From the IMG/VR virus record IMGVR_UViG_3300031673_007569, positions 1 to 27,740 of that record: 27,740 nucleotides of DNA, one strand, 5' to 3'. The notes under the pieces were generated by a model. The model was not told where the DNA came from. It ran no database searches and was given only the letters and a program-made list of their open reading frames with translations. This document shows, one piece after another, positions 871-27,740 of this stretch. Source of the stretch: a virus. The position numbers and the translations under genes are program-made. Position 1 is the first letter of the stretch, and the number at the start of each line of letters is the position of its first letter.

Positions 871-896
871 GGGCCGGGGACTGAGGGCGGCGTGAT
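871..896 (+). repeat. Gene-junction repeat, copy 2
   Basis: GGGCCGGGGACTGAGGGCGG continuing to CGTGAT. The 19 bases at 878-896 are identical to those at 152-170. It supplies the ribosome-binding region and the GTG start of the methyltransferase gene at 892. A separate sequence, TAGCGACGAGGGAGCA, sits directly after this copy (896-911) and recurs at 3370-3384 before the next gene, so leader modules have been copied more than once. Confidence 0.75.
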
Positions 897-3372
897 AGCG
901 ACGAGGGAGCAGACAATCCACGTTGGGGACGCGAAGGAATGGCTGGAGTCCTTGCCGGCCGCGAGCGCGAACTGCGCGGTGACGAGTCCTCCGTATTGGG
1001 GGTTGCGCGACTACGGCGCCGAGGGGCAGCTCGGGCTGGAGTCCACGCCGACCGCCTACATCGAACAGATGATCGGGGTGCTGGGCGAACTGCGGCGGGT
1101 GCTGCGACCGGACGGTGTGCTGTGGCTGAACATCGGGGACTCGTATGCGGCCAACCGGAGTTATCAGGTGGCCGACTCGAAGTGGAGGGATGTGGGCAAC
1201 GAGATGTCGGCGTCTACCCCGGACGGCCTCGCCCCCGGCGACCTCGTAGGCATCCCCTGGTCGCTGGCGTTTGCGCTACGGGAGACGGGGTGGAGGATAC
1301 GGAGCGAGGTGGTGTGGTGCCTTAGCGGGGGCGTCAAACTGTACGCGAAGACACAGAATGGTGTCGGCCCCGCGATGCTGAAAGACCTTGTGCGGTTGCG
1401 TCCCGATACGGTGGCGCTCTGGAATGGGGAGAGGTGGACACGCGTCACGCATTGGACGCCTGCCGTCAGCAGGGATGGGGCTATTGAGGTCGAGTTCCGT
1501 AGCGGGGAGCGCGTCGGCTGTACGGTCGGGCACCTCTGGCCCACACAAAGAGGGCTACTAACTGCCGCCGACCTGCGGGTTGGAGACATCATCCCCGATT
1601 GCCAGTTGCCAGGGGATGAGGCGCACGGATTGCCGAGCGGGTTGTCGCCAGACACGGGCGAGGTAGTCGGCCTTTTCCTCGCGGAGGGTAGTTCTTCTGG
1701 CAGCACGATGCAGTTTAGCTTATCCGTCAACGAGCGACACCTCTATGAGCGCATTCAGGCTTTCGCCCGATTCTACGATGAACCTGTGGGCTACCATGTC
1801 TATGGGAATACGATGGCAGTACGCGTTGAAGGCACGGTTGCCCAGGCCGTGATTCGCCGGTTCGTCACGGGAAGGACCTCGAAAGAGAAACGGCTCTCGC
1901 CGGCCGCATGGCGCTATGGGAACAGGTTTCTGCGCGGTATCCTCGCGGGGTATCTCTGGGGCGACGGCGGGGAAGACGAGAAAAATACCCGCTGGAGGCT
2001 TGGCTTCACGCAGAACGACGCGCTGGCGGCCGACCTTCGCTGTCTGGCGGCGCGACTCGGGGCCAAGATATCTCTGCGCCGCGCTCGCCACAAGCTCGGT
2101 GACCGCTACTATCCGGGATATCGCGGGGAACTGCGTTGGGAGCCGCACAAGCACCCCAATGCAAAACCGATGGGCGAGGTCGTGGCGATCCGCCGTAGCC
2201 GCGCTCGGAAGTTCTGGGATGTGACGGTCGCCGATGCACCACATCTGTTCGCCTTGGCATCGGGATTGCTGACGCATAACTCGAAGCCCAACCCGATGCC
2301 CGAGAGCGTGAACGGGTGGCGCTGGGAGCGGCATAAGGTGAGGGTGGGGAATCATGGCCGCGCAACAGAGCGCCAGCGACAACAGACAGGGCAACAGGAC
2401 CACGACGGAAGGAACTTCCAGCCGGATACCATCTGGCAGCCCTGCCCCGGCTGCGAGAAGTGCGCGGCGAACGACGGTCTTGTGCTGCGGCGTGGCTCGT
2501 GGCGGCCGACTTCAGCGCACGAAAAGGTCTTCATGCTGACCGGCCCCGGCGTCTACTTCGGCGACGCGGAGGCGGTGAGGGAGGCGGCGGATACGATACC
2601 TCATAGTCCAGGGCGTAAACCCGAAGGGCGGAACGCGATGGTGAATGGACATCGTGGCGGATGGGGAGAATTCGACGAGCCGGAGCGTCTCTGGGCGCAA
2701 TCTGGCGGCCGCAACCTCCGCAACGTCTGGGCCATCACCACCGCCCCAATGTCCTGGGAGATGTGTAAGGCCTGCAAGCGGGTCTATAGCGGCGCGGAGT
2801 TCCGGCGGCTGCCGGTCCACTCCGACAATGGGCGCGATCATCGCATCTGCCAAGGGCGCATCAAAGAGGCTGGCTATGAGGGTTGGATATGCGGGCAGTT
2901 TGATTCCTGGCTCTCCCACTTCGCCACCTTCCCGCCGGCGCTGGTGGAGCCGTGCATCCGGTCAACCTGCCCCGAGCGGGTCTGCGTCGAGTGCGGGGAG
3001 CCCTGGGCGAGGGTGGTGGAGTATGGCGAGAAGATTAGCGGAGACGGTCGCCCCAATCCATACGAGACGGGGTGGGATAAGGGTTCTGTGGTTGGCGAGC
3101 GGACCACTGCCGGGAACATGATACGCCAGAAGCGCCCTCTCGGCCTCCGCCCGACCTGCTCCTGCGGTGCCGACTGGCAAGCCGGACTGGTGATAGACCC
3201 GTTCGCGGGCAGCGGCACAACCCTCCTCGTCGCGGAGTGGGAGGGTAGACGCGGCGCCGGGTGCGACCTGAACCGTGATTACGTGATACTCGCGACGGAG
3301 AGGATACGCCGGGAGAGCCGGCCGTCTGAAGCGGAGGCGGAACGCGTTGGGCAGATGGGCCTGTGGAACTAG
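892..3372 (+). CDS. Beta-class DNA methyltransferase (N6-adenine or N4-cytosine) interrupted by an intein
   Basis: The 826-residue precursor holds two exteins totalling 505 residues and an intein at residues 143-463. The catalytic motif TSPPYWGLRDYG is at 31-42 and the SAM-binding motif DPFAGSGTTLL at 769-779. Catalytic motif before FxGxG marks a beta-class amino-methyltransferase acting on exocyclic amines of A or C. Removing the intein joins SEVVW to SKPNPMPESV, the conserved strand and motif seen after the target-recognition side in this family. Cysteine pairs (518, 521, 524; 625, 628; 693, 698, 701; 757, 759) suggest zinc-binding inserts. The GTG at 892 is taken as start because it follows the junction repeat and the conserved MTase fold begins soon after. 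A Dam/CcrM-like or restriction-evasion role is inference; no cognate restriction gene is seen. Confidence 0.92.
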   Translation: MIATREQTIHVGDAKEWLESLPAASANCAVTSPPYWGLRDYGAEGQLGLESTPTAYIEQMIGVLGELRRVLRPDGVLWLNIGDSYAANRSYQVADSKWRDVGNEMSASTPDGLAPGDLVGIPWSLAFALRETGWRIRSEVVWCLSGGVKLYAKTQNGVGPAMLKDLVRLRPDTVALWNGERWTRVTHWTPAVSRDGAIEVEFRSGERVGCTVGHLWPTQRGLLTAADLRVGDIIPDCQLPGDEAHGLPSGLSPDTGEVVGLFLAEGSSSGSTMQFSLSVNERHLYERIQAFARFYDEPVGYHVYGNTMAVRVEGTVAQAVIRRFVTGRTSKEKRLSPAAWRYGNRFLRGILAGYLWGDGGEDEKNTRWRLGFTQNDALAADLRCLAARLGAKISLRRARHKLGDRYYPGYRGELRWEPHKHPNAKPMGEVVAIRRSRARKFWDVTVADAPHLFALASGLLTHNSKPNPMPESVNGWRWERHKVRVGNHGRATERQRQQTGQQDHDGRNFQPDTIWQPCPGCEKCAANDGLVLRRGSWRPTSAHEKVFMLTGPGVYFGDAEAVREAADTIPHSPGRKPEGRNAMVNGHRGGWGEFDEPERLWAQSGGRNLRNVWAITTAPMSWEMCKACKRVYSGAEFRRLPVHSDNGRDHRICQGRIKEAGYEGWICGQFDSWLSHFATFPPALVEPCIRSTCPERVCVECGEPWARVVEYGEKISGDGRPNPYETGWDKGSVVGERTTAGNMIRQKRPLGLRPTCSCGADWQAGLVIDPFAGSGTTLLVAEWEGRRGAGCDLNRDYVILATERIRRESRPSEAEAERVGQMGLWN
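1318..2280 (+). mobile_element. Intein with LAGLIDADG-type homing endonuclease, inside the DNA methyltransferase
   Basis: This in-frame insertion of 321 residues begins with Cys143 (CLSGGVKLY, block A) and ends with His462-Asn463; the +1 extein residue is Ser464. Block B is seen as CTVGHLWPT (210-218, TxxH pattern) and block F as FWDVTVADAPHLFALASG (441-458). Two LAGLIDADG-like helices occur, VVGLFLAEG (258-266, acidic residue E265) and LRGILAGYLWGDG (347-359, acidic D358). All expected splicing residues (Cys1, block B His, penultimate His, terminal Asn, Ser+1) are present, so it looks splicing-competent. The endonuclease keeps both acidic positions and may be active. Boundaries are set by the splicing residues and by restoration of the methyltransferase motif W-SKPNPMPES across the junction. 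Confidence 0.93.
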
Positions 3373-10947: not shown

Positions 10948-11496
10948 ATGCCAGTCCCACCAGACAAGCCAGAAGAGTGCCTGCACCACGCCTATGCCTT
11001 CGTTCGTTCGTGTAAGAAGACGTATGGGCTGAGGACGGATGAGGTCGAGGACGCGGCGGGGGAGTTGACTGCCTACATGATTTCCATAGCCCTGCCGCAC
11101 CTTGACCGGACGAGAACGCTCGCGGCCCAACGCAGATGGTGGCATCGGACCGTGCGTGGGGAGTTCATGCACTGGCTGCGGGATCGGCGGAACCTGATAC
11201 GCATACCGGGGCTAAGATGGGAGCGAGGCGACATTCCTGCCTACTCCGTCATCGTTCCGCAGGAGCAGTTGGCGGCAGTCGGATCGGCGGTTCTGGACGG
11301 CTGGGAGGACCGGGTCTGCGATATCGTGGATTTGCAGGCCTGCCTGAAGCGTGCGGGACTGACGGCGGAGGAGAAGGAATGCTTGAGCCGGTCGGTACTC
11401 GATGGCAATCCGCCAGACGGCATGACTCGGCAGCACTGGTACTACATGACGGGCAAGGCGCGGAAGAAACTGCGGGAAGCGAGGAACAACCCATGA
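10948..11496 (+). CDS. Sigma-70-like phage transcription regulator
   Basis: In this 182-residue protein the N-terminal part (HHAYAFVRSCKKTYGLRTDE then VEDAAGELTAYMISIA) and the following RWWHRTVRGEFMHWLRDRRN resemble a sigma region 2 layout. The C-terminal LQACLKRAGLTAEEKECLSR and MTRQHWYYMTGKARKKLREA resemble a region-4 helix-turn-helix. No strong identity to a named sigma factor can be claimed. It lies at the end of the early module, just before the non-coding array and terminase genes, where a late-gene activator would be expected. No clear ribosome-binding site is seen in the 39-base gap upstream (10909-10947), the largest gap in this half. Confidence 0.55.
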   Translation: MPVPPDKPEECLHHAYAFVRSCKKTYGLRTDEVEDAAGELTAYMISIALPHLDRTRTLAAQRRWWHRTVRGEFMHWLRDRRNLIRIPGLRWERGDIPAYSVIVPQEQLAAVGSAVLDGWEDRVCDIVDLQACLKRAGLTAEEKECLSRSVLDGNPPDGMTRQHWYYMTGKARKKLREARNNP

Positions 11497-12239
11497 ATCG
11501 AGAAGCAGTAAGAGTCCTAGTCGAGACGTACTATGACATCCAAGACCTGAGAATCCGCACGCAGAACCGTATCCGGGCGGCCCATGATAGGGGCGTACTG
11601 GAAGAGGCCTGGGTCCAGAAGTTGCACGACCGCGTTGACGTGAAGATGCGGATGCAGGAGGATGCCGTCAAGCGCATGATTCAGGCGGAAATCAAGCACG
11701 AACCGTTGTGGGTGAAGTGGCTGCAGGGCGTCAAGGGCATCGGACCCTGCGTCGCGGGCGGCCTTCTGTCCTGGGCGGGCGACTGCTCGCAATTCACCAA
11801 CGTGAGCAAGCTGTGGGCCTATTCGGGCCTGCACGTCGTAGACGGGGCCGCGCCGAAGCGCAAGAAGGGAGAGAAAGCGAACTGGAATCCCCGCCTACGG
11901 ACGCTGGCCTGGAAGGCTGCGAAGTCCTTCGTGATGGTGGGGAACGGCTACCGGGAACTCTACGAGCAGGAGAAGGTGCGCCTGCGTAGGTTACACCCAG
12001 AACCGGAGAGTTGGGACCCGCCGCGGTACATGAAGAAGGAGGACGACAACGGCAAGAAGGTCGAGATCATGCACTTCAGCGACGGGCATGTTGACGCGAT
12101 GGCCCGGCGGAAGGTGGCCAAGGTGTTCTTTGCCCACTACTGGCAGATGGCGCGGGAGTCGGCAGGGCTGGATACACGCTCGCCCTGGGTGATTGAACAC
12201 GGCGGTCACCAGACGGAGATCCCGGTGGTGATGGACTGA
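11493..12239 (+). CDS. Orphan IS110/IS116-type C-terminal (Transposase_20-like) helix-hairpin-helix protein
   Basis: In this 248-residue protein residues 74-113 (VKWLQGVKGIGPCVAGGLLS, then WAGDCSQFTNVSKLWAYSGL) match the helix-hairpin-helix opening of the IS110-family C-terminal domain. The following NPRLRTLAWKAAKSFVMVG resembles its NxxLR helix. The N-terminal RuvC-like DEDD domain of those transposases is absent; residues 1-70 are instead helical and charged. The Ser-Gly expected to carry the nucleophile after GL appears by eye to be Asp-Gly (VVDGAAPKRKKG), so transposition is unlikely. The ATG overlaps the preceding stop. The stop codon TGA is the first part of the repeat array that follows. 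A DNA- or RNA-structure-binding role is inference. Confidence 0.65.
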   Translation: MNREAVRVLVETYYDIQDLRIRTQNRIRAAHDRGVLEEAWVQKLHDRVDVKMRMQEDAVKRMIQAEIKHEPLWVKWLQGVKGIGPCVAGGLLSWAGDCSQFTNVSKLWAYSGLHVVDGAAPKRKKGEKANWNPRLRTLAWKAAKSFVMVGNGYRELYEQEKVRLRRLHPEPESWDPPRYMKKEDDNGKKVEIMHFSDGHVDAMARRKVAKVFFAHYWQMARESAGLDTRSPWVIEHGGHQTEIPVVMD

Positions 12240-12270
12240 GCCAAAGGACCCGTGCATTCCGAGTTCATTC

Positions 12271-12531
12271 TGCGAGTCATGCCCTTTTTGAGACCCAGGT
12301 GTGGTATGCGAGCCATTCGCGCTCTGAGACCCAAGCGAAGTATGCGAGCCAATTCGGCAATGAGAACCATGGCGGTCCTGCGAGCCAGGCAACACCTGAG
12401 GCCCATTCCAGCGTTGCGAGCCACATTGACGGTGAGAACCATGTTCAGACTGCGAGCCACGAATGAGGTGAGAACCAATCGGCAATTGCGAGCCATGGCA
12501 TAATTGAGGCCCACAAATGGTATGCGAGCCA
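12271..12531 (+). repeat. 18-bp-period array: alternating 9-mers TGCGAGCCA / TGAGRMCCA with variable 9-nt spacers
   Basis: Fifteen constant 9-mers occur exactly every 18 bases, from 12271 to 12523. Type A is TGCGAGCCA at 12307, 12343, 12379, 12415, 12451, 12487 and 12523, with TGCGAGTCA at 12271. Type B alternates strictly with it: TGAGACCCA (12289, 12325), TGAGAACCA (12361, 12433, 12469) and TGAGGCCCA (12397, 12505). The 14 spacers are all nine bases and all different; examples are tgccctttt, ggtgtggta, ttcgcgctc, cattgacgg and caaatggta. Decayed units seem to precede it: TGAGCCA at 12237, which contains the upstream stop codon, and TGCATTCCG at 12253, each followed by nine bases. Identical A blocks beside fully divergent spacers argue for constraint at the DNA or RNA level rather than recent tandem duplication. 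Confidence 0.92.
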
Positions 12532-12694
12532 ATCTCGGAGCGGACATAAAAAGCGATGCCGTGCCTGCGGTTACGACTTGAATTACGGCATAATACCAGA
12601 TGGCTAGAGTCGCATGAGTACGGCGTGAATCCGGCCCTTGGCCATATAACCCACCGTCGTTCCAAGTGAACGGGGGCCCGCCCAAGGGCAGATA

Positions 12695-12714
12695 GCTGGC
12701 GACGCGTCGCCGGC
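12695..12714. other. 20-base near-perfect palindrome
   Basis: The core GGCGACGCGTCGCC (12698-12711) is a perfect 14-base palindrome; with flanks it extends to GCTGGCGACGCGTCGCCGGC with a single G-T wobble. It could bind a dimeric protein, act as a nicking dyad as in cos sites, or form an RNA hairpin with a CGCG loop. Nothing in the sequence decides between these. Confidence 0.7.
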
Positions 12715-12741
12715 AACTGCGGTCTGTTTCGGTCTGATCAA

Positions 12742-12776
12742 CCGGGCCAGACCCCAGGGGCCGGCTTTCGCTTTTT
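12742..12776 (+). terminator. Possible intrinsic terminator at the end of the early transcript
   Basis: CCGGGCC (12742-12748) can pair with GGCCGG (12759-12764) with one bulged G, followed by CTTTCGCTTTTT, a broken T-rich tract. The stem is short with a bulge, so this is a moderate candidate. The segment GGGGCC (12757-12762) can also pair with GGCCCC at 12777-12782, giving an alternative fold that competes with the large stem-loop downstream. Confidence 0.35.
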
Positions 12777-12829
12777 GGCCCCCATGTGGGGCGGTAGCTG
12801 CGTAGCAGCCTCCGTCCCCTATGGGGCCC
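12777..12829 (+). other. Long stem-loop with 25-nt arms, directly upstream of the terminase operon
   Basis: The arms 12777-12801 and 12805-12829 enclose a three-base GTA loop. Pairing position by position gives 21 of 25 pairs (19 Watson-Crick and two G-T), with mismatches at 12779/12827, 12787/12819, 12795/12811 and 12796/12810. The inner stem is GCTGC-GTA-GCAGC and the outer stem is CCCCAT/ATGGGG plus GG/CC. There is no T tract after it, so it is not a standard terminator. It ends ten bases before ATG 12840 and could sequester or set up translation of the first packaging gene, or form part of a packaging site. Confidence 0.8.
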
Positions 12830-12839
12830 GGAGAGAGCA

Positions 12840-13034
12840 ATGAGGATTCGGGACGAGGACGGCGCCTTGAGGCTCGCGGCGGCTATCGTCAACCAAGCCC
12901 GCAAGGACCTGCGAGGGAAGGGCCCAGTCGAACGGGAGAACTCTCGCGAATTCTTCCATGGGGAGTTGTTTACCACCATGTGCGAAGCCTGTGACCGTAA
13001 ACCCGAAGACGCGCGAAGGGCGCTGGGGCTGTGA
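12840..13034 (+). CDS. Small protein upstream of terminase, 64 aa
   Basis: MRIRDEDGALRLAAAIVNQA, ending CEACDRKPEDARRALGL. The ATG follows GGAGAG by about four bases, right after the large stem-loop. It is mainly helical with one CEAC pair. It may be an accessory of the packaging machinery by position; no family recognised. Confidence 0.6.
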   Translation: MRIRDEDGALRLAAAIVNQARKDLRGKGPVERENSREFFHGELFTTMCEACDRKPEDARRALGL

Positions 13035-13054
13035 TATGAGCGTGACTCTCTCCC

Positions 13055-13588
13055 ATGCCTAAGAAGACCACGAAATCCAAGAAGGCCGCTATCCCGGGTG
13101 CTTCAGCACCGCGGAAAAACAAGGGCGGCCGACCTCGGATCGCCATTGATTACGAGCTACTCGGCCGCCTTGCGGCCTGCCACTGCCGGGATAACGAGAT
13201 GGCGGACATCCTCGGCATCTCTGTCGATACCCTTGACCGACGCAAACAAGATGATCCGCGTTTTGCGGAGATTCTGAGTAAAGAGCGGGCCAACGGCAAA
13301 CTGGCACTTCGTCAGGCTCAGTGGGAGAACGCCCTCACCGGCAACTACACGATGCAGATATGGCTCGGCAAGCAGCACCTGGGCCAGAAGGACCGCCAGA
13401 CCACAGAGGTTGAGATCGACGTAGCCCGGGCCCTTGCGCAGATAGGGCAGGCGCTGGGCGACCTGATAAGAGACTTCGTCCCCCCCGAGCGGTGGGAAGA
13501 GGCAATGGAGCGAGTCTCAGTCATAGATGACAGCATCAACTCACGGATTACTGACGGCGACCGTCGAGAGAAGCCTGCGGTCCACTAG
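13055..13588 (+). CDS. Terminase small subunit candidate (helix-turn-helix)
   Basis: The 177-residue protein has a basic N-terminus (MPKKTTKSKKAAIPG, KNKGGRPR). Residues about 31-55 (LLGRLAACHCRDNEMADILG then ISVDTLDRR) form a helix-turn-helix as in phage small terminase subunits, followed by KLALRQAQWENALTGNYTMQ, typical of these proteins, and an acidic C-terminal part. It directly precedes the large subunit and overlaps it by 62 bases. Its expected task is recognising the packaging site, which makes the array at 12271-12531 a candidate target. No clear ribosome-binding site precedes ATG 13055; a nine-codon frame at 13036-13062 might couple its translation. Confidence 0.75.
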   Translation: MPKKTTKSKKAAIPGASAPRKNKGGRPRIAIDYELLGRLAACHCRDNEMADILGISVDTLDRRKQDDPRFAEILSKERANGKLALRQAQWENALTGNYTMQIWLGKQHLGQKDRQTTEVEIDVARALAQIGQALGDLIRDFVPPERWEEAMERVSVIDDSINSRITDGDRREKPAVH

Positions 13589-20097: not shown

Positions 20098-20550
20098 GTG
20101 AGAACATCCGACCAAGTGATTGACCAGACGATTGCACGACTGCAGGGGGCAGACCCAGCGGCAGCAGCAGCCTGGGCGCTACGTCACCGCGGCGTCTGTC
20201 CGCTCTGCCAGGGCCGCGCGACCGTATCCCGCGAAGACCCCGTGACGGGGCGTCGCATCTTCCGCTGCCGGGACTGCCAGTGGACGGCCGGCATCTCCGA
20301 GCCGCAGTTTCGGGCGCGGGCGGACGTTGCCCTGCGCGGCATTTGCCTTGCTGCCATAGAGGCGGCGCGGGCGGCAGAAGCCAGGAGGGGCAGCCGAGGC
20401 CAATACCGCACGACCAGCAGCGACCGACGCAGCAGGAGACCCAGCAGTGGCCCAGATCAGGATCGGACTCAATCTACTGACGTGCAACCTAGCCCAGTGC
20501 CCGATACACGAACAGGCGGCCCGGTACGCGATAGAGAGCCTACTCGATAG
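20098..20550 (+). CDS. Zinc-ribbon protein, function unknown
   Basis: The GTG start at 20098 has AAAGGA six bases upstream. The 150-residue protein has a zinc ribbon CPLCQGRATVSREDP ... FRCRDCQW (Cys pairs about residues 34-62), then helices ARADVALRGICLAAIEAARA. The last 35 residues (SSGPDQDRTQSTDVQPSP) are disordered-looking and overlap the glycosyltransferase gene by 104 bases, unusual in this window, where overlaps are generally far shorter. The frame may have lost an earlier stop. Confidence 0.55.
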   Translation: MRTSDQVIDQTIARLQGADPAAAAAWALRHRGVCPLCQGRATVSREDPVTGRRIFRCRDCQWTAGISEPQFRARADVALRGICLAAIEAARAAEARRGSRGQYRTTSSDRRSRRPSSGPDQDRTQSTDVQPSPVPDTRTGGPVRDREPTR

Positions 20551-21364
20551 CGACATAGCAGTCTACGACTGGCGACTCGTCATCGTCGACAATGCAAGCA
20601 CCTGCCCGCGGACCGTCGAACTGCTTCAGGGCCTTGAGGCTACGAACGAGCGGGTGGCGATAGAGTGGTCCGACGAGAACGTGGGCATCGCTAAGGGCCG
20701 CAATCTAGGCTTCCAGGTACTCCACGAGTGGCACGCGCCAGAATACGTCGTGGAGATCCACACCGATATGGTCTTCCCCGCAAATACCGAGCGGGACACG
20801 CCGGTGGGCTGGCTGCAGCCGATTATCGAGTACATGGCGCACCCCAACAACGTTGACGTGGCGATCATGGGGCCATCCCTGCTGACGGCGGGTGGGCAAT
20901 GGTACTCGCCGCGGCCTTTGATCCCCTACCAACTGTCAGAAGCGCAACTGCAGAACTACGAAACCTTCCGCGCCGAGGTGACGAAGGCAGCGCTGGTATG
21001 GCGACGGCCGAAGCGCGTGCGGCCCGGACTCAGCCACCCCGCGGTGAAGCGATGGTCGGCACTGGAGGCGATAGGCATACATCGGGACGGAAAGTTGCAC
21101 CCTTACGACCCGGATATGCCTGGGCGGCAGAACTTCGAGGATACGGAGGAGGCCTTTCGAGCGCACGGGGCGGGGTACAGGATCGAGATTCATTTCGGCT
21201 CGATGGTGTTCCACAACTACCACCTGACGCGGTTGGGCCTGTCAGACCACCCGGCGGACTATGACGCGAACAATCAATACGTGCAGGTCAAGCACGGGCC
21301 GGCGGAATGGGTGGCTTGGAATGGGCTGATCGGCAAGTGGATGGAGGAGGCGTATCGGCGGTGA
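20447..21364 (+). CDS. Family-2-like glycosyltransferase (GT-A), first of a tandem pair
   Basis: In this 305-residue protein the core is RIGLNLLTCN (5-14), DWRLVIVDNASTCPRTVELL, NVGIAKGRNLGFQVL and VVEIHTDMVF, where HTD is the DxD-like metal/nucleotide-sugar site. C-terminal features include FEDTEEAFRAHGAGY (an ED pair typical of the catalytic-base region) and VFHNYHLTRLGL. GTG 20447 follows AGGAG by about ten bases. It likely transfers a sugar to a virion, DNA or host-surface acceptor; donor and acceptor are unknown. The next gene is a close paralog. Confidence 0.82.
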   Translation: MAQIRIGLNLLTCNLAQCPIHEQAARYAIESLLDSDIAVYDWRLVIVDNASTCPRTVELLQGLEATNERVAIEWSDENVGIAKGRNLGFQVLHEWHAPEYVVEIHTDMVFPANTERDTPVGWLQPIIEYMAHPNNVDVAIMGPSLLTAGGQWYSPRPLIPYQLSEAQLQNYETFRAEVTKAALVWRRPKRVRPGLSHPAVKRWSALEAIGIHRDGKLHPYDPDMPGRQNFEDTEEAFRAHGAGYRIEIHFGSMVFHNYHLTRLGLSDHPADYDANNQYVQVKHGPAEWVAWNGLIGKWMEEAYRR

Positions 21365-22197
21365 CTGAGCGTATCGGAATCAACCTGCTGACCTGTAATG
21401 CCGCGGGCAGTCCGCTTCACCTGCGCGCCACGCAGTACGCCGTCCGCAGCCTGCTCGCATCGGACGTACAGCGGTATGACTGGCGTCTGCAGATCGTGGA
21501 CAACGGCAGCGATTGTCCGGCGACGCATGAATGGCTGGACGAACTGCAGGGCAACGAGCGAGTGGCCGTCCACCGCTTGGGCGCGAACGCCGGGATCGCC
21601 AAGGGTAGGAACATCGCCTGGGAATTGCTATCGGACTGGAGGCCGGACTTTGGCGTGGAGATTCATACCGACCACATCTTCCCGGCGACCTGGCTGGTTC
21701 CGCTGGTAGCGTGGACCCAGCAGCATCTGAGGATCGGTATGTGCGGGTGCGCACTGGTGACACAGGGGCACGCCTGGGGGAGCCCACAGGTCGAGATCAA
21801 CTACGACTGGCCCTATGAGCAGTGCTGGGGCGAGGTGGAGAAGGCGACGCGCCTACACCGCCGGCGGGGACACATGACGGAAGGCCTGAGCCACCCCGCG
21901 GTGTACCCCTGGGGAGCACTGCAGGAGATGGGCTTCTACGATGACGCAATGCCCGGACGGCAGGAGCTTGAGGACACCGAGTTGGCGTATCGGCTGACGA
22001 AGGCAGGTTGGCTGGTGGTGATCTATCACGGGAGTTACGTCTGGCACCACTACCACTTCTCGCGGCTGGTGCTGAATGACTGGGCCACGTCCTATGACGC
22101 GAACAACCTGTACTGCCAGACGAAGCACGGGCCGGAGTTCATCAAGTTCGCGACGACGACCATTGGCGGCTGGATGGAGAAGGCATACCGGAGATGA
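21361..22197 (+). CDS. Family-2-like glycosyltransferase (GT-A), second of the tandem pair
   Basis: A 278-residue paralog of the preceding gene: TERIGINLLTCN, YDWRLQIVDNGSDCPATHEW, NAGIAKGRNIAWELL, GVEIHTDHIFPATW, LEDTELAYRLTKAGW, VWHHYHFSRLVLNDWATSYD and GGWMEKAYRR all align with the neighbour. The HTD metal motif is kept. GTG 21361 overlaps the upstream TGA (GTGA). Divergence is concentrated in the middle acceptor-side region, so donor or acceptor specificity may differ. Confidence 0.82.
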   Translation: MTERIGINLLTCNAAGSPLHLRATQYAVRSLLASDVQRYDWRLQIVDNGSDCPATHEWLDELQGNERVAVHRLGANAGIAKGRNIAWELLSDWRPDFGVEIHTDHIFPATWLVPLVAWTQQHLRIGMCGCALVTQGHAWGSPQVEINYDWPYEQCWGEVEKATRLHRRRGHMTEGLSHPAVYPWGALQEMGFYDDAMPGRQELEDTELAYRLTKAGWLVVIYHGSYVWHHYHFSRLVLNDWATSYDANNLYCQTKHGPEFIKFATTTIGGWMEKAYRR

Positions 22198-22520
22198 ATA
22201 ACCGCATAAACGTTAGGATGCACACGAAACGGGGTGCGACCATCAAGGTCTCATGGTGGCATGAGATCCGCCAGAAGGCCTCAGCACACCGCGTCATTCT
22301 CTGCAGTTGGCAACGCATGGGACCACCAGGCACAACTGTCCACGAGTTCTACTGGTATGTCGTTGTCCAGCACCTTAACCATTGGCGATGGCGGGAAACA
22401 AGCACGGTGCGACATCTGCTTCAGGAATGCGCCAAGGGACATTTACACGCAGAAGCCCGATCATTGGTGACGGGGATAGCCATCTATCCTGATTATAGGT
22501 GTAGATGCTACGACAGATAA
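22194..22520 (+). CDS. Protein of unknown function, 108 aa
   Basis: MNNRINVRMHTKRGATIKVS, with VHEFYWYVVVQHLNHWRWRE and C-terminal AIYPDYRCRCYDR. ATGA overlap with the glycosyltransferase gene supports this frame over an alternative one at 22234. Basic and aromatic; not recognised. Confidence 0.5.
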   Translation: MNNRINVRMHTKRGATIKVSWWHEIRQKASAHRVILCSWQRMGPPGTTVHEFYWYVVVQHLNHWRWRETSTVRHLLQECAKGHLHAEARSLVTGIAIYPDYRCRCYDR

Positions 22521-22711
22521 GGGCGATGAAGCCCCTCCAGGAAATTGGTCTGACGTTCGCGCTTATCGCCCTCATGCTGGCCTTTGTGCTCGCGGTGGCG
22601 GGCAACTACCTGTGGGCGGTGATCGCGTTCGTCTTCGGTCTGGTGGTGGGGGAGCGGTGCGCGGATGCGATTCTGGACGCGGAAAAGCAACGAAGGGAGA
22701 TTGACGAATGA
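22505..22711 (+). CDS. Small membrane protein with two predicted TM helices
   Basis: In this 68-residue protein two hydrophobic segments, IGLTFALIALMLAFVLAVAG (about 14-33) and YLWAVIAFVFGLVVG, are joined by a short turn; the C-terminus RCADAILDAEKQRREIDE is charged. Size and topology are compatible with a holin or small inner-membrane protein, but position within the glycosyltransferase cluster gives no support for lysis. ATG 22526 is an alternative start with a better-placed AGGG. Confidence 0.55.
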   Translation: MLRQIRAMKPLQEIGLTFALIALMLAFVLAVAGNYLWAVIAFVFGLVVGERCADAILDAEKQRREIDE

Positions 22712-23073
22712 CCCAGCCCCAGACGGATCGGGATGTCGAGACAGACAAGAAAGCCTATGCCCTGTATTGTGGCCCCCTCGGTGGAGAGGATTCACACTTC
22801 CGATTTCTGTCATGGTGGGATTCCATCGGGCGCGCCATTGAGTGCGCGATGCACTGTCACGGTTCACGCCAACCGGACTTCACCGGCGAGTCCGTTGGCA
22901 TGTGTTATCGCATAGTTGAATCCGAGAGCCCTACCCTCGACAGCAAGACCGGCGATTTCTCCGGTCCGGGCAAACCCACTGGCTGGTATATGACCCTAGT
23001 CCTCCACGCGCGATATTTCAGGGCGGGCACCCAGAAACCGGGTCCGACCCTGCGAGGAGAAAAGGACGAATGA
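22708..23073 (+). CDS. Protein of unknown function, 121 aa
   Basis: MTQPQTDRDVETDKKAYALY then CGPLGGEDSHFRFLSWWDSI and GWYMTLVLHARYFRAG, ending RGEKDE. It overlaps the upstream stop as ATGA. Not recognised. Confidence 0.55.
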   Translation: MTQPQTDRDVETDKKAYALYCGPLGGEDSHFRFLSWWDSIGRAIECAMHCHGSRQPDFTGESVGMCYRIVESESPTLDSKTGDFSGPGKPTGWYMTLVLHARYFRAGTQKPGPTLRGEKDE

Positions 23074-23159
23074 CCTGGGCTGAGGCGGTGGTGCAGATGA
23101 CGTGGATATGGGCAGTGCTGCGGCTACTCCAGACGTTGCTGACGCCGCGGCAGAAGTGA
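23070..23159 (+). CDS. Very small hydrophobic peptide, 29 aa
   Basis: MTWAEAVVQMTWIWAVLRLL followed by QTLLTPRQK. ATGA overlap with the upstream gene and GAGGAGAAAAGG just before the start support translation. One amphipathic or membrane-spanning helix. Function unknown. Confidence 0.45.
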   Translation: MTWAEAVVQMTWIWAVLRLLQTLLTPRQK

Positions 23160-23168
23160 GGAGGCGAG

Positions 23169-23528
23169 ATGAACGACAAGTGGATTGCAGTTTGGGACTA
23201 TGTGTCCGGCATAGATGAAACGAAGCACCCGAACTTTGTGGTCAAGCGTTCCGAGATCAGGCGGGAGGTGGTGGAGACGATTGACCGGCTGGCGAAAGAT
23301 GCCCTGTCATGCCTGCCAACGGCAGACCGCGAGGCACGCAATGCTCTATGGCAGTTATCCGTAGCGGCGACGGCGAGGCTGGCCGCGAACGACGTACCCC
23401 GAGACCGCTTCCGCGAGGTGGTGCGGGAGTTGGTGGATGGATTGGAAGAAGACATATCTGTTGGGCGAGAGGTAAGGGTCCGCGTTGCCCTCGCCAAAGT
23501 CAAGGCGCTGCTGGAGGCCGAGAAATGA
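23169..23528 (+). CDS. Protein of unknown function, 119 aa
   Basis: MNDKWIAVWDYVSGIDETKH then a mostly helical body REVVETIDRLAKDALSCLPT ... VRVALAKVKALLEAEK. GAGGAGG lies shortly before ATG 23169. Not recognised. Confidence 0.6.
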   Translation: MNDKWIAVWDYVSGIDETKHPNFVVKRSEIRREVVETIDRLAKDALSCLPTADREARNALWQLSVAATARLAANDVPRDRFREVVRELVDGLEEDISVGREVRVRVALAKVKALLEAEK

Positions 23529-23713
23529 AAATCTGTGTGGATGGCCTGACGTTCGACGTATCATTAGAGCCATGGTGGGACCCGCGTGCGTGGTGGTCGC
23601 TGCTCGGGTTCTGGTGGCTCACAAGGCGGGGACGTATCGACACATCGCGAATGCGAAGAGAGGCCCGGGGCATCTTCTTCGACGTCAATGCCATGCTGGG
23701 GGCCGAGAAGTGA
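23525..23713 (+). CDS. Small protein, 62 aa
   Basis: MKICVDGLTFDVSLEPWWDP, then RAWWSLLGFWWLTRRGR and RREARGIFFDVNAMLGAEK. ATGA overlap. The bases at its start (GGCCGAGAAATGAAAATC, 23516-23533) recur with one change at 23701-23718 at the next gene start. Not recognised. Confidence 0.5.
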   Translation: MKICVDGLTFDVSLEPWWDPRAWWSLLGFWWLTRRGRIDTSRMRREARGIFFDVNAMLGAEK

Positions 23714-24651
23714 AAATCCACACCATCGCTTTTGAGTTCCTGGAGCCCTTCTGCGACGAGTACGTCGACTGGGTACAGGACCCCGGCGAGGCCGACTTCA
23801 TCTTCACCATGAACTCCGGCGGGCGTGAGGGCATGGATGCGATGGCCTACGCGCGTTCGCTCGCTGACAAGTACGGCAAGCCGCTCTGCTGGTGGACAAT
23901 CGAAGACCCGAACGCCTACCAGGGCTTCGTCGGGCAGGCACGCCTCGCCGACTATGTGTTCACCACTGACCGGGCCTGCATCCCGTTCTATCGGCGGGAC
24001 TGCAAACACGACCGCATCTTCTGGCTGCCGTTGGCCGCGTCGGAGAAGTTCCACCGGCCGCTGCCGCTGCGCGAGGACGCGACGGACGCTGTCTTCTCGG
24101 GCAACTGGTATGACTCGCAATGGGAAGCGCGGCGGTGGGGCGTACAGACGGTGATCCTGCCGCTTGCCGAGGCGGGCTACTCCATCACCTGCTTCTCTCT
24201 GGACGAGCCGCCATATCCGATTCTGCTGCGGGAGCCGAACCGCTGGATTGGGCCGACTGACCCACGCTCACCGGGCTATTACGGGGCGACCGCCGAGCAG
24301 TACACCTGGGGCAAGGTGGTGCTGGGGGTCAACAACCAGCGGAGTGGGATGGACGGCCGGGGCGAGACGGTAATGACGTCTATGCGGACCTTCGAGGCCC
24401 TGGCCTGCGGCAAGCCGTTCCTGGCGGCGCATAGTGACGCGTACGAAGCGCTGGGATTCAAGAATGCAGCCTTCGGCATCGAAGGGGAAGGCCACATGAT
24501 AGTCATCCCATGTGACTGCCAACCCGATGTAGATATCATGGGTTGGTTTGATAGATTTGGTGACGCCATGGCTGAGCGCGGCCGCGCCTTCGTCCTGGCG
24601 CACCACACCTACGGCCATCGAATGCGGGCGATCATGGAGGCGATAGGATGA
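23710..24651 (+). CDS. CgeB-like glycosyltransferase (GT-B type)
   Basis: The 313-residue protein starts VKIHTIAFEFLEPFCDEYVD. The N-terminal Rossmann half includes CWWTIEDPNAYQGF and ADYVFTTDRACIPFYR; the C-terminal half includes DAVFSGNWYDSQWEAR, GKVVLGVNNQ, and MTSMRTFEALACGKPFLAAH, the E-containing donor-binding loop of CgeB-like family-1 transferases. It probably transfers an activated sugar. GTG 23710 overlaps the preceding TGA. It belongs to the window's glycosyltransferase cassette. Confidence 0.8.
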   Translation: MKIHTIAFEFLEPFCDEYVDWVQDPGEADFIFTMNSGGREGMDAMAYARSLADKYGKPLCWWTIEDPNAYQGFVGQARLADYVFTTDRACIPFYRRDCKHDRIFWLPLAASEKFHRPLPLREDATDAVFSGNWYDSQWEARRWGVQTVILPLAEAGYSITCFSLDEPPYPILLREPNRWIGPTDPRSPGYYGATAEQYTWGKVVLGVNNQRSGMDGRGETVMTSMRTFEALACGKPFLAAHSDAYEALGFKNAAFGIEGEGHMIVIPCDCQPDVDIMGWFDRFGDAMAERGRAFVLAHHTYGHRMRAIMEAIG

Positions 24652-24917
24652 AGCAAACCAGCCCGACGGGGATACCTCTTCTGGACCTTCCGCTATGGCT
24701 ACTGGGTTTCGGCGGGGAGGACGAATCGGCCGCGGTCATATTTGCCTTTCCGCTTCCACCTCCCGGTTGGCGATCGGAGGCGGAGAAGCGGGATGACCAC
24801 GAGCGGATTTGCGAAGCCCTCGCGATGTGTCTAAATTGCGGGAGGGTAAAGGCGACCTGCCGCAACCGCTTCGGGGAGCGCGTGTGTGGTGCCTGCCAAG
24901 TGGAGGCAACAGAATGA
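24648..24917 (+). CDS. Small protein with C-terminal zinc ribbon, 89 aa
   Basis: MKQTSPTGIPLLDLPLWLLG, a Pro-rich middle (FPLPPPGWRSE), and CLNCGRVKATCRNRFGERVC then GACQ at the C-terminus, giving a CxxC...CxxC ribbon. ATGA overlap. Not recognised. Confidence 0.55.
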   Translation: MKQTSPTGIPLLDLPLWLLGFGGEDESAAVIFAFPLPPPGWRSEAEKRDDHERICEALAMCLNCGRVKATCRNRFGERVCGACQVEATE

Positions 24918-25147
24918 CCCAACCCGAGCCACAGCAGCCCGAGAAGAAGCCCGCCGCAATGGACTGCCAGGACTGCAATCGAACCCTGTCGCTGCCGCTC
25001 GTCTCGGGCTTCGTCAAGAAGGTCGAGGGCAAGCTCTACATCGCGGCGCTCTGTCCCGACTGCAGCGTAAAGCGCATGGGGCTGGAGTGGCGACTGATGG
25101 AAAGACCGAGCATCGTAGTGCCGGGGCAGCAGCAGAGGCCGCTGTAA
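24914..25147 (+). CDS. Small zinc-ribbon protein, 77 aa
   Basis: MTQPEPQQPEKKPAAMDCQD, with CQDC and CPDC pairs (about 18-21 and 47-50) flanking SGFVKKVEGKLYIAA. ATG 24914 overlaps the upstream stop. Together with the previous gene it is one of several small ribbons in this phage; function unknown. Confidence 0.55.
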   Translation: MTQPEPQQPEKKPAAMDCQDCNRTLSLPLVSGFVKKVEGKLYIAALCPDCSVKRMGLEWRLMERPSIVVPGQQQRPL

Positions 25148-25170
25148 GACTGACGACAGGAGTCGAGACA

Positions 25171-25935
25171 ATGATGTTCCCGAATGAGCAGGCGGACACG
25201 GCGCGGGTTGTGAGGCGATTGGCGCAAGCGATTGAGCGCAAAGAACCATGCAGCTTGATCTCCATGGCGGATGGAGAGGCGGCGGTCCTATGGGCGGCAC
25301 GAGGCTTCGGGGGGTTCCACTATCTCAGCGCGTGGGGGTTCTCGGCAGAGGATCGCCAGGGCGTGGCCGAGCAGTTGGCGGCGGCTATCCCGAAGTGCGA
25401 TATCGTGTGCCTTCCCCGCTCCGGTCCCATGGCGAAGCAACCGTACATGGGGCCAAGGCTCATGGAGGCGTTGCACCTCTGGGATATTCGGCCCAAGCCC
25501 GAAGCGTTGATCGGCGACTCGCTGGTCAGTTTCTATCTCTATTTTGATTGCTGGCTGTGGTCGTTGATGGAGAATAGGAACGTGTTGATCGTCACGAACG
25601 AAGCCGACAAGGTGGTGGCAGCCTTGAACGGACGGCAACCGCCAACCGGACTCGCCGCATACGCTGGGGCTGGCTATTGGCGGCATGCGGAGGCAACCGG
25701 AATAATGCTGGGGGATGGTCTTGCCGGGTCCGCGCAGTGCCTTGTAGATGCAGGGAACCTGCCAGGGAAGCCCGACCTTTGCCTGCTCGGGGCTGGCTCT
25801 CGGGCAGCGCACCTTGCCGTGGAATTGGCGCAGATGCACGAGATGCCTGTCATCGAACTCGGTAGTGCGTTCGCATGGCTGCACACACCCAGCGAACCGG
25901 CCCAGCTTTTCACGTGGTATCAGGCGGAGGGTTGA
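25171..25935 (+). CDS. GT-D fold-like putative glycosyltransferase
   Basis: In this 254-residue protein SLISMADGEAAVLWAARGFG near the N-terminus resembles the (G/A)DGE motif of GT-D fold (DUF1792-type) transferases. The C-terminal KPDLCLLGAGSRAAHLAVEL ... MPVIELGSAFAW matches their second Rossmann-like part. NVLIVTNEADKVVAAL lies between. The acidic ADGE is the likely metal/donor site. ATG 25171 has AGGAG about eight bases upstream. Family assignment is by motif only. Confidence 0.6.
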   Translation: MMFPNEQADTARVVRRLAQAIERKEPCSLISMADGEAAVLWAARGFGGFHYLSAWGFSAEDRQGVAEQLAAAIPKCDIVCLPRSGPMAKQPYMGPRLMEALHLWDIRPKPEALIGDSLVSFYLYFDCWLWSLMENRNVLIVTNEADKVVAALNGRQPPTGLAAYAGAGYWRHAEATGIMLGDGLAGSAQCLVDAGNLPGKPDLCLLGAGSRAAHLAVELAQMHEMPVIELGSAFAWLHTPSEPAQLFTWYQAEG

Positions 25936-25939
25936 GACA

Positions 25940-26929
25940 GTGAACGTAGTGATCTACTATCCTGTGCTGGGTGGCGGCGGCTGCGAGAAACGCCTCGCGG
26001 AATTGGGCCGCTGGCTACTGGAGAACGGCGACGAGGTCTGGATCGCCGCGGCATACCTTACTACCGACATCGCACCCAGTATCATGTGCGGTCAGTGCGG
26101 CTTCCCGTGGCATCGCATCCGCTTCATGGAGCCGGGCGGCAGCATCGAGGATCATGTCGTCAATGTCTGCCGGGAGGTAGAGGCCGACATCCTCGACGTG
26201 CAGTGGGTGGAGCCCCTGCCAGCCGAGTTCCCGTGCCGAGCCGTCTATACCACGCATGGCATAACTCAACCCCTCCCGTTGCGCGACGATTTCTCGGGTC
26301 ACATCAGCGTCGAGACCGTTGGGCCGCACTCGGAGCACCAGGCATATGCGCCCGTGTTCGGCGAGATATGGAACTGGGTGGACCTGGACAGATTCCGCTT
26401 CGAGGGGCGGCTGGGCAAAGGGGTGGCCTTCTTCGGGCGCAGCTTCAAGTTGCACCCTAACGTGGTGGCGTTGGCAGAGAGCGGAACGCAGGTGGACGCC
26501 TTCGGCTTCCTCGCCGGAGGCATGGATGGCCTATCTGAGAACATCAACTGGCGGGGATTCGCGGACATGGCCCATGAAGTCTACCGTTACCGGATCGTAC
26601 TCGCCTCGGCGCAGGCGGCGCTGGAGGCGGTCGCGGCCGGCCGGTTGGTGATTTGCGGACACGAGCAGGGCGGGTACACGCCCGAGGCGTCCCTGGTTAT
26701 GCCGGATATGATGCCATCGCTCTCAGCCCGCCAGCTCTGGTACTCATACGCCGCGGCTGAGGACGCGGACGTGCGGGTGGCCGCGTTGCTGAGCCGGTTC
26801 GAGGCCGCCCAACAGCAGGACTTCACGCGGGAGCGCAGGCAGATGCGGGCCTATATCGAGCAGCATCACGATATGCGGCAGCAATGCGCCAAGGTGAGGC
26901 AGGTCTACGAGGAGGTATTGGCGTTATGA
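25940..26929 (+). CDS. GT-B glycosyltransferase, family-4-like
   Basis: The 329-residue protein starts MNVVIYYPVLGGGGCEKRLA, the Gly-rich donor-domain loop of GT4-type enzymes, followed by ELGRWLLENGDEVWIAAAYL. Later features are ADILDVQWVEPLPAEF, YTTHGITQPLP, WNWVDLDRFRF, GVAFFGRSFKLHPN and ALEAVAAGRLVICGHEQGGY, the donor-side AxxAGxPVI-like loop. GTG 25940 follows the previous stop by four bases. The acceptor is unknown. Confidence 0.78.
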   Translation: MNVVIYYPVLGGGGCEKRLAELGRWLLENGDEVWIAAAYLTTDIAPSIMCGQCGFPWHRIRFMEPGGSIEDHVVNVCREVEADILDVQWVEPLPAEFPCRAVYTTHGITQPLPLRDDFSGHISVETVGPHSEHQAYAPVFGEIWNWVDLDRFRFEGRLGKGVAFFGRSFKLHPNVVALAESGTQVDAFGFLAGGMDGLSENINWRGFADMAHEVYRYRIVLASAQAALEAVAAGRLVICGHEQGGYTPEASLVMPDMMPSLSARQLWYSYAAAEDADVRVAALLSRFEAAQQQDFTRERRQMRAYIEQHHDMRQQCAKVRQVYEEVLAL

Positions 26930-27740
26930 TCGTGGACAGACTTGCCGAGCGAGTGATCGAGACCGTTCAAGCCTGCACCCCGCTTCAACGGCAGGCCCTC
27001 CGCCGCGCCCTGGTGGTCGGCATAGAGGGCCCGGAGCAGATCGCCCTATGGGAGGCGGTAAGGCCCGCGCTCTACGCTGATTCCGCAGACGACACGGCGT
27101 CCCTAGCGGACCTCCGCGCGGCCGCCGAGGAAATGCCATTTGAGGCCTGGGCCGCCTTCAACGATCTCATCTTCCATCTCCACCGGGGCAACATCTTCGA
27201 CGATGGGATAACCCGGCTGGAGGGCGGCGGGATCGAGTTCGCATTCGCGCAGGCCGCGCGGTGGCACCAGTTCCTCGCCCTGGTGGAAGAGGAACGCGAG
27301 TACCTTGGCATTGCCTCTCCGCTGGTGTTGGACGCGGGATGCTGGCAGGGCACCCTGATCTGCGAACTCCTGCAGCGCGGATACGCCGTTGGTGGCTGTG
27401 ACATATCCGCGGGCATGGAGGAAGTTGTCCGCGAGCGGGTATCGTGGCTGAAGCCGGACGATGCGGCGAGGTTCCTGGGGTTCCGCGCCGGGCCGATCCA
27501 CGAGTCGCTCGCCGGCCCCGACACGCAGAACCGCTTCGACATCGTATGCTGCCAGGAGACATTGGAGCATGTGCCAGCTAGGGTTCTTCAGCAGACTTGC
27601 GACGCGCTGGTGCGAGCGGCGAGGCATACGGTACTGACAACAACTCCGTGGGACGATGGCTGGAGTCTCCACCTCCACGCGTTCACCGAGGCGGATTTGA
27701 GGCGGCTTTTCCATGACGAAGATCCGCAACGCCAGGTGGA
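26926..27740 (+). CDS. SAM-dependent methyltransferase, 3' truncated by window edge
   Basis: ATG 26926 (MIVDRLAERVIETVQACTPL) overlaps the previous stop and the frame stays open for 271 codons to the edge. Class I methyltransferase features appear from about residue 130: LVLDAGCWQGTLICELLQRG (motif I), GGCDISAGM (motif II Asp) and FDIVCCQETLEHVPAR (motif IV region). The N-terminal 110 residues are helical (AFNDLIFHLHRGNIFDDG). At the end of a glycosyltransferase cassette it may methylate a sugar or a small molecule; this is inference. Confidence 0.75.
   Translation, partial: MIVDRLAERVIETVQACTPLQRQALRRALVVGIEGPEQIALWEAVRPALYADSADDTASLADLRAAAEEMPFEAWAAFNDLIFHLHRGNIFDDGITRLEGGGIEFAFAQAARWHQFLALVEEEREYLGIASPLVLDAGCWQGTLICELLQRGYAVGGCDISAGMEEVVRERVSWLKPDDAARFLGFRAGPIHESLAGPDTQNRFDIVCCQETLEHVPARVLQQTCDALVRAARHTVLTTTPWDDGWSLHLHAFTEADLRRLFHDEDPQRQV

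What the first reader, a model, noticed from the sequence alone, without database searches (positions are those of the whole stretch)
12237..12531. An 18-bp-period array of alternating constant 9-mers and variable 9-nt spacers with no known counterpart
Fifteen 9-mers sit exactly every 18 bases. Eight are type A (seven identical TGCGAGCCA and one TGCGAGTCA) and seven type B (TGAGACCCA, TGAGAACCA or TGAGGCCCA), strictly alternating. All 14 spacers between them are nine bases and unrelated in sequence. Constant blocks next to fully variable spacers look like constraint on DNA or RNA rather than decaying tandem duplication. The period is too short for CRISPR and the blocks too uneven for classical iterons. 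The array begins at the stop codon of the IS110-like gene (decayed units TGAGCCA at 12237 and TGCATTCCG at 12253) and lies upstream of the terminase genes. Possible roles: packaging-site array for the small terminase, replication origin, a set of short RNA guides or decoys, or a target or product of the IS110-like protein.
Basis: seen in the sequence. Interest (0 to 1): 0.85.

Follow-up and report, generated by a model that had tools for sequence, protein, structure and literature searches.

The report
A phage TIGR-Tas guide-RNA array
The strange 18-base pattern is real, but it is a recently described kind of RNA-guide array (TIGR) that sits next to its partner protein (Tas), so this phage carries one more member of a known RNA-guided DNA-targeting family rather than something without counterpart.

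Summary
In detail: 15 nine-mers every 18 bases, strictly alternating between two types, with 14 nine-nt spacers (12271-12531). A decayed unit extends it back to 12237. The claim of "no known counterpart" is wrong. This is a TIGR array (Tandem Interspaced Guide RNA; Faure et al., Science 2025, PMC12045711) with its Tas protein, the "IS110-like" gene 11493-12239. That protein scores 188 bits on NCBI's TIGR-Tas model (cut-off 100) and only 34 on the IS110 model (cut-off 140). Its predicted fold matches TasR and TasH first. It lacks a nuclease domain, so it is a stand-alone Nop-type TasA. The array shows the published layout: edge repeat TGCGAGCCA, loop repeat TGAG(A/G)(A/C)CCA, both UG...CCA, 9-nt spacers, 36-nt unit. 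The pattern occurs in 82 IMG/VR stretches, with Tas beside it in 52 of 60 array contigs. A relative with 99% identical Tas keeps the repeats but shares only one whole unit and one further spacer. Likely action: each 36-nt tigRNA guides TasA to an 18-bp DNA target, one spacer pairing to each strand. Natural targets remain unproven; one weak lead points to capsid genes of other phages. New member of a known kind.

The parts
11493..12239 (+). tasA-like gene, 248 aa, solo Nop / Transposase_20-type RNA-binding protein without a nuclease domain; its start overlaps the stop of the upstream ORF (ATGA)
   Evidence: NCBIfam NF052498 TIGR_Tas_endo 187.8 bits, cut-off 100; phmmer to TasR 9mty_A E 1.8e-43 and TasH 21kl_A E 7.4e-18; Foldseek top hits TasR and TasH
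12237..12243 (+). 5' truncated edge repeat TGAGCCA, overlapping the tas stop codon
   Evidence: sequence; truncated first edge is typical of TIGR arrays (PMC12045711)
12244..12270 (+). unit 0: spacer A AAGGACCCG, decayed loop TGCATTCCG, spacer B AGTTCATTC
   Evidence: sequence
12271..12306 (+). unit 1: edge TGCGAGTCA, spacer A TGCCCTTTT, loop TGAGACCCA, spacer B GGTGTGGTA
12307..12342 (+). unit 2: edge TGCGAGCCA, spacer A TTCGCGCTC, loop TGAGACCCA, spacer B AGCGAAGTA
12343..12378 (+). unit 3: edge, spacer A ATTCGGCAA, loop TGAGAACCA, spacer B TGGCGGTCC
12379..12414 (+). unit 4: edge, spacer A GGCAACACC, loop TGAGGCCCA, spacer B TTCCAGCGT; the only unit shared whole with the nearest relative L090/L009
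12415..12450 (+). unit 5: edge, spacer A CATTGACGG (shared with L090), loop TGAGAACCA, spacer B TGTTCAGAC (replaced in L090)
12451..12486 (+). unit 6: edge, spacer A CGAATGAGG, loop TGAGAACCA, spacer B ATCGGCAAT
12487..12522 (+). unit 7: edge, spacer A TGGCATAAT, loop TGAGGCCCA, spacer B CAAATGGTA
12523..12531 (+). closing edge repeat TGCGAGCCA

Best explanation
The feature is a dual-repeat TIGR array and the gene ending at it encodes its partner, a TasA-type (nuclease-less) Tas protein. The array is probably transcribed with or just after tas and cut within the edge repeats into about seven or eight 36-nt tigRNAs: half edge, spacer A, loop, spacer B, half edge. A Tas dimer binds the UG (box D) and CCA (box C) motifs of edge and loop. 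Spacer A then pairs with one strand and spacer B with the other strand of an 18-bp DNA site, with no flanking motif needed. Without a nuclease, the complex most likely binds and bends the site and blocks transcription, replication or maintenance of a competing element. Shown here: anatomy, protein family, predicted fold, constant pairing of array and Tas across phages, and changing spacers with fixed repeats. Known from the cited work on other members: processing to 36 nt and two-strand targeting. Inferred only: that this copy is expressed, what it targets, and the blocking outcome.
For: Protein: NCBIfam TIGR_Tas_endo 187.8 bits, cut-off 100, E 2.5e-55. phmmer: TasR structure 9mty_A E 1.8e-43, TasH 21kl_A E 7.4e-18, IS110-type ISCro4 only E 0.76. 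AlphaFold model pLDDT 91.5; Foldseek ranks TasR (E 3.5e-12) and TasH above IS621/ISCro4 (E 2.6e-4 and weaker) and Nop5 (E 0.55). Array: two alternating 9-nt repeats that start UG and end CCA, 9-nt spacers, 36-nt unit, matching the published description. Across 728 unique units spacer positions 1-8 carry 0.00-0.08 bits, repeat positions 0.55-1.92. Prevalence: 82 IMG/VR stretches; 52 of 60 contigs with an array of 8 or more blocks have a Tas homologue within 1.5 kb, all 79 pairings on the same strand; Tas is the only gene shared widely by these loci, 59 loci against at most 5 for the others tested. Relative L090/L009: Tas 246 of 248 residues identical, array of 14 units sharing one full unit plus one spacer A. 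The array of the experimentally studied TasH phage CGphi29 uses edge ...GCGAGCCA, the same core as here.
Against: No convincing rho-independent terminator was found directly after the array, although published arrays typically end with one. No promoter-like site was found in 11400-13100; host promoter type is unknown. Unit 0 is decayed. Expression cannot be tested here. No excess of target sites was found for 728 units in 732 kb of flanking phage DNA or in 1.4 Mb of other phage loci apart from hits that had been sought by pattern.
Confidence: 0.97

Rival explanations
1. The gene is an IS110-family transposase and the array is its bridge RNA, target or product.
For: Pfam names the domain Transposase_20 of IS116/IS110/IS902 and PHROGs names the family transposase; the fold is related to IS621 and ISCro4.
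Against: IS110 model 34.4 bits against a cut-off of 140, TIGR-Tas model 187.8 against 100. The 248-aa protein has no N-terminal catalytic domain: the N-terminal helices align to the Tas Nop region. IS110 uses a single bridge RNA, not an array of many units. Arrays and Tas co-occur across unrelated phages.
Confidence: 0.01
2. The array is a DNA-level protein-binding site: packaging site for the small terminase, partition site or replication origin iterons.
For: It lies upstream of the terminase genes (13055, 13527); regular spacing; published TasA loci sometimes carry a ParB-like gene (PMC12045711).
Against: Arrays follow tas, not terminase: of the loci tested only L009/L090 and L052 carry a relative of this terminase small subunit, while 59 carry Tas. 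Iterons have one repeat type, not two alternating ones with UG...CCA ends. Many loci have arrays on both sides of tas.
Confidence: 0.01
3. The array is an in-frame coding repeat of a small protein.
For: 18 nt is a multiple of 3 and two minus-strand frames are open across the window's array.
Against: In 67 distinct arrays of 12 or more blocks no frame is consistently open (best frame 22 of 67). Spacers carry almost no information. Several arrays contain 17- or 19-nt steps that shift frame.
Confidence: 0.005
4. Same system, but used on the phage's own genome or genes (regulation) rather than against competitors.
For: The published authors leave regulation and help to integrases open for TasA (PMC12045711).
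Against: No near-match of A + rc(B) to the window at 2 mismatches or fewer outside the array; no excess of peptide-level matches to own genes over shuffled pairs, p = 0.07 with a very small effect. The rest of this phage genome is not held.
Confidence: 0.15

Closest known systems
TIGR-TasR of Thermoproteota archaeon LB_CRA_1 (TaTasR, PDB 9mty)
   Same: Nop domain fold and sequence (E 1.8e-43), dual-repeat array, repeats starting UG and ending CCA, 9-nt spacers, 36-nt unit
   Different: TasR carries an N-terminal RuvC nuclease; the window protein has none
TIGR-TasH of Salicola phage CGphi29 (PDB 21kl, 9w04)
   Same: Phage-borne, array beside the gene, edge repeat with the same GCGAGCCA core
   Different: HNH nuclease in TasH; loop repeat and repeat length differ
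TIGR-TasA (solo Nop), e.g. Flavonifractor plautii locus described in PMC12045711
   Same: Nuclease-less Tas with dual-repeat array; closest by architecture
   Different: Repeat sequences and host differ; that locus was not compared at sequence level here
IS110-family transposases (IS621, ISCro4)
   Same: Share the Nop-like RNA-binding fold
   Different: DEDD catalytic domain, single bridge RNA, weak sequence similarity; IS110 cut-off not met
CRISPR arrays
   Same: Repeats with variable spacers that encode guides
   Different: One long repeat and long spacers in CRISPR; here two 9-nt repeats and two 9-nt spacers per guide, no Cas or adaptation genes found

Membership tests
TIGR-Tas (dual-repeat type) | Two distinct alternating 8-12-nt repeats with spacers of about 9 nt | tested here: met
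   15 strictly alternating 9-nt blocks and 14 nine-nt spacers
TIGR-Tas (dual-repeat type) | Repeats carry UG (box D) at the start and CCA (box C) at the end in both repeat types | tested here: met
   TGCGAGCCA and TGAGRMCCA; one TGCGAGTCA and decayed unit 0 deviate
TIGR-Tas (dual-repeat type) | Array next to a Nop-domain Tas protein | tested here: met
   NCBIfam TIGR_Tas_endo 187.8 bits over cut-off 100; array starts at the stop codon; 52 of 60 array contigs have Tas within 1.5 kb
TIGR-Tas (dual-repeat type) | Tas fold: Nop domain with coiled-coil, as in TasR/TasH | tested here: met
   AlphaFold pLDDT 91.5, Foldseek TasR E 3.5e-12, TM 0.67
TIGR-Tas (dual-repeat type) | Array begins and ends with truncated edge repeats and a rho-independent terminator follows | tested here: inconclusive
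   5' truncated edge TGAGCCA present; final edge complete; no clear terminator directly after the array
TIGR-Tas (dual-repeat type) | Processing into 36-nt tigRNAs bound by Tas; two-strand DNA targeting | not testable with these tools
   needs small-RNA sequencing and binding assays
TasA subtype | No HNH or RuvC nuclease domain | tested here: met
   248 aa; the PDB match to the 331-aa TasR covers TasR residues 121-264 only; only Transposase_20 in Pfam; the in-frame upstream extension overlaps another ORF and is shorter in L090
IS110 transposase | Reaches the IS110 equivalog cut-off / has a DEDD domain | tested here: not met
   34.4 bits against 140; no N-terminal domain
CRISPR | Identical long repeats, Cas proteins | tested here: not met
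   9-nt alternating repeats; no Cas-type domain among the window genes scanned
Iterons / packaging site | Single repeated binding motif linked to the replication or terminase gene | tested here: not met
   two alternating motifs; linkage is to Tas, not terminase

The most novel reading that the evidence does not exclude
This TasA array is a weapon in phage-phage competition whose single spacers are swapped one at a time: the one unit kept between two otherwise different arrays (unit 4) targets an 18-bp coding site conserved in major capsid genes of other phages, and half-guides of 9 nt are replaced independently of their partners.
Probability: 0.1. Interest if true: 0.7.

Novelty: new member of a known kind. 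Interest (0 to 1): 0.35.

Why it matters
TIGR-Tas was described in 2025 and its natural targets, and how its arrays change, are open questions. This locus adds a well-defined TasA system with a near relative that has the same protein and a different array, a natural comparison for both questions. It also shows that database names such as "transposase" hide Tas proteins in phages.

Tried and rejected
1) Targets in flanks: 728 unit pairs scanned as A+rc(B) with gaps 0-2 against 732 kb; no excess over opposite-orientation or shuffled-pair controls. 2) Targets in 1.4 Mb of other phage loci, including 80 loci found with a capsid family: no excess apart from sequences that had been fetched by pattern. 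3) Peptide-level matches of A+rc(B) to own genes: not above shuffled pairs, p = 0.07. Unit 7 reads WHNYHL, resembling a motif of the window's glycosyltransferases, but IMG/VR hits of that 18-mer lie in unrelated genes, so it was dropped as coincidence. 4) Unit 4 target GGCAACACCACGCTGGAA: six gap-free IMG/VR stretches, all in major head protein genes of two families, phrog_334 and phrog_14242. This counts as only two independent events, about the number seen by chance for other units, and no INPHARED phage holds the full 18-mer, so it stays a lead. 5) Two guides of a mycobacteriophage stem-loop type array gave no full-length match in INPHARED. 6) Rfam: no family at gathering score; only sub-threshold hits of no meaning. 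7) IS110, iteron, packaging and coding readings rejected as listed.

Full report
What is there. The window holds 15 nine-base blocks at exactly 18-base steps from 12271 to 12531, alternating between TGCGAGCCA (once TGCGAGTCA) and TGAGACCCA / TGAGAACCA / TGAGGCCCA, with 14 nine-base spacers. The longest such run is 15 blocks here; in Markov-randomised sequence every value visible in the truncated printout was 1 or 2. A decayed unit precedes it from 12237, where TGAGCCA overlaps the stop codon of the upstream gene.

What it is. The layout matches the dual-repeat TIGR array of Faure et al. 2025 (PMC12045711): two alternating repeats of 8-12 nt, spacers of about 9 nt, a 36-nt unit, UG at the start and CCA at the end of both repeats, and a truncated first edge repeat. 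Type A is the edge repeat (the array opens and closes with it; it has an internal C-G that can pair). Type B is the A-rich loop repeat. This assignment is inference from the published rules. The gene that ends at the array, 11493-12239, is the Tas protein: NCBI's curated TIGR-Tas model gives 187.8 bits (cut-off 100), the IS110 model 34.4 bits (cut-off 140). phmmer against PDB sequences finds TasR 9mty (E 1.8e-43) and TasH 21kl (E 7.4e-18). The AlphaFold model (pLDDT 91.5) matches TasR and TasH first, IS621 and ISCro4 next, and Nop5 weakly. No nuclease domain is present, so it is TasA-type. The longer in-frame reading that starts at 11136 overlaps another ORF and is shorter in L090, so 248 aa is taken as the protein.

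How widespread. The pattern TGCGAGCCA-N9-TGARRMCCA occurs in 82 IMG/VR stretches, which hold 134 parsed chains of blocks, some overlapping and including the window and its relatives. Of 60 contigs with an array of 8 or more blocks, 52 have a Tas homologue within 1.5 kb; the 79 array-Tas pairings are all on the same strand (some arrays count twice where the parser overlapped). Other genes near the window's array are not shared in this way. In the public genome collection the three-block pattern was found in 10 stretches, from MAGs labelled Bacteroidetes, Smithella, Desulfobacterales, Planctomycetota and several archaea. Among named phages, Tas relatives occur in 82 records, mostly mycobacteriophages.

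Constraint. Across 728 unique units the spacer positions carry almost no information (0.00-0.08 bits at positions 1-8, 0.24 at position 9) while repeat positions carry 0.55-1.92 bits. No reading frame is consistently open in 67 arrays. The nearest relative (L090/L009; Tas 246/248 residues identical, flanks 89-94% identical) has a longer array of 14 units that shares one whole unit (GGCAACACC/TTCCAGCGT) and one spacer A (CATTGACGG, with a different spacer B), in the same order with one unit between them.

Array change. Three observations bear on how arrays change. First, the shared spacer A with a replaced spacer B just described. Second, two contigs, L066 and L081, are 99.9% identical over 6.5 kb; seven of their eight differences lie in two neighbouring B spacers of a 13-unit array, six of them in one spacer; this may be population variation or an assembly effect. 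Third, L021 and L053 differ in the surrounding DNA but are identical across tas plus array, about 2300-3600 of L021, which suggests the module moves as one cassette. These are comparisons of metagenome contigs, not experiments.

Mechanism. From the published biochemistry of other members: precursor RNA is cut inside edge repeats to 36-nt tigRNAs; a Tas dimer binds box C and D motifs; spacer A pairs with one DNA strand and spacer B with the other of an 18-bp site with 0-2 bp between the halves and no flanking motif. From the reported 8-nt 3' overhangs I derive the target as spacer A followed by the reverse complement of spacer B; this is my inference. TasA lacks a nuclease, so binding and bending with a block of transcription, replication or maintenance is the most likely outcome. 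Expression and function of this copy are not shown.

Targets. No excess of target sites was found. The A+rc(B) target of the shared unit 4 occurs without gap in six IMG/VR stretches, all inside major head protein genes: five in one family (phrog_334, Phage_capsid_3; two of the five stretches are identical over 2.5 kb) and one in another (phrog_14242). These are two independent events. Other units also gave a few chance events of this kind, and no INPHARED record holds the full 18-mer. It is recorded as a lead with low probability.

Verdict. A new member of a known kind: TIGR-TasA in a tailed phage. Interest lies in the natural pair of loci that share a protein and differ in spacers, not in a new type of element.

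Noticed in passing
window 12586-12779: Intergenic stretch between the array and the small terminase gene, nearly identical in L090 although the array beside it is replaced; folds better than shuffles (z -2.85), ends in a GC-rich stem followed by TTTCGCTTTTT; no Rfam match. Possible structured RNA, only two copies found.
   Followed up: partly
window 892-3372: N6/N4 DNA methyltransferase gene whose Pfam match is split and whose middle (about residues 231-389) weakly matches an RNA polymerase subunit A'' model known to carry inteins; an HN-S like junction suggests an intein.
   Followed up: partly
window 10948-11496: ORF directly upstream of tas with weak, short sigma-factor similarity (SigF model, E 0.0016, far below cut-off); its stop overlaps the tas start (ATGA), so the two may be co-translated.
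   Followed up: partly
L066 and L081 arrays: Two contigs 99.9% identical over 6.5 kb whose differences are nearly all in two TIGR B spacers; one spacer is replaced while all else is the same.
   Followed up: partly
L021 2250-3690 against L053: tas plus array is 100% identical between two phages whose flanking DNA differs by several percent, as if exchanged as a cassette.
   Followed up: partly
L010, L034, L050, L053, L054 arrays: Related arrays share spacers in mosaic fashion: whole units in changed order, single A or B spacers with other partners, and near-identical spacers with 1-2 substitutions.
   Followed up: partly
L202, L204, L207: Tas relatives of Mycobacterium, Gordonia and Rhodococcus phages (some annotated as transposase) sit beside palindromic units that look like the stem-loop type of TIGR array; hosts are known, so these may be good for target searches.
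   Followed up: partly
L205 4625-5000: Microcystis phage Mvi-JY20 carries an unannotated dual-repeat TIGR array (edge TGCGAGCC, loop ACGAAACCC) downstream of a Tas homologue, ending in a clear terminator.
   Followed up: no
window 20447-27000: A run of genes with glycosyltransferase-type domains downstream of the head genes, unusual in number for a phage fragment.
   Followed up: no
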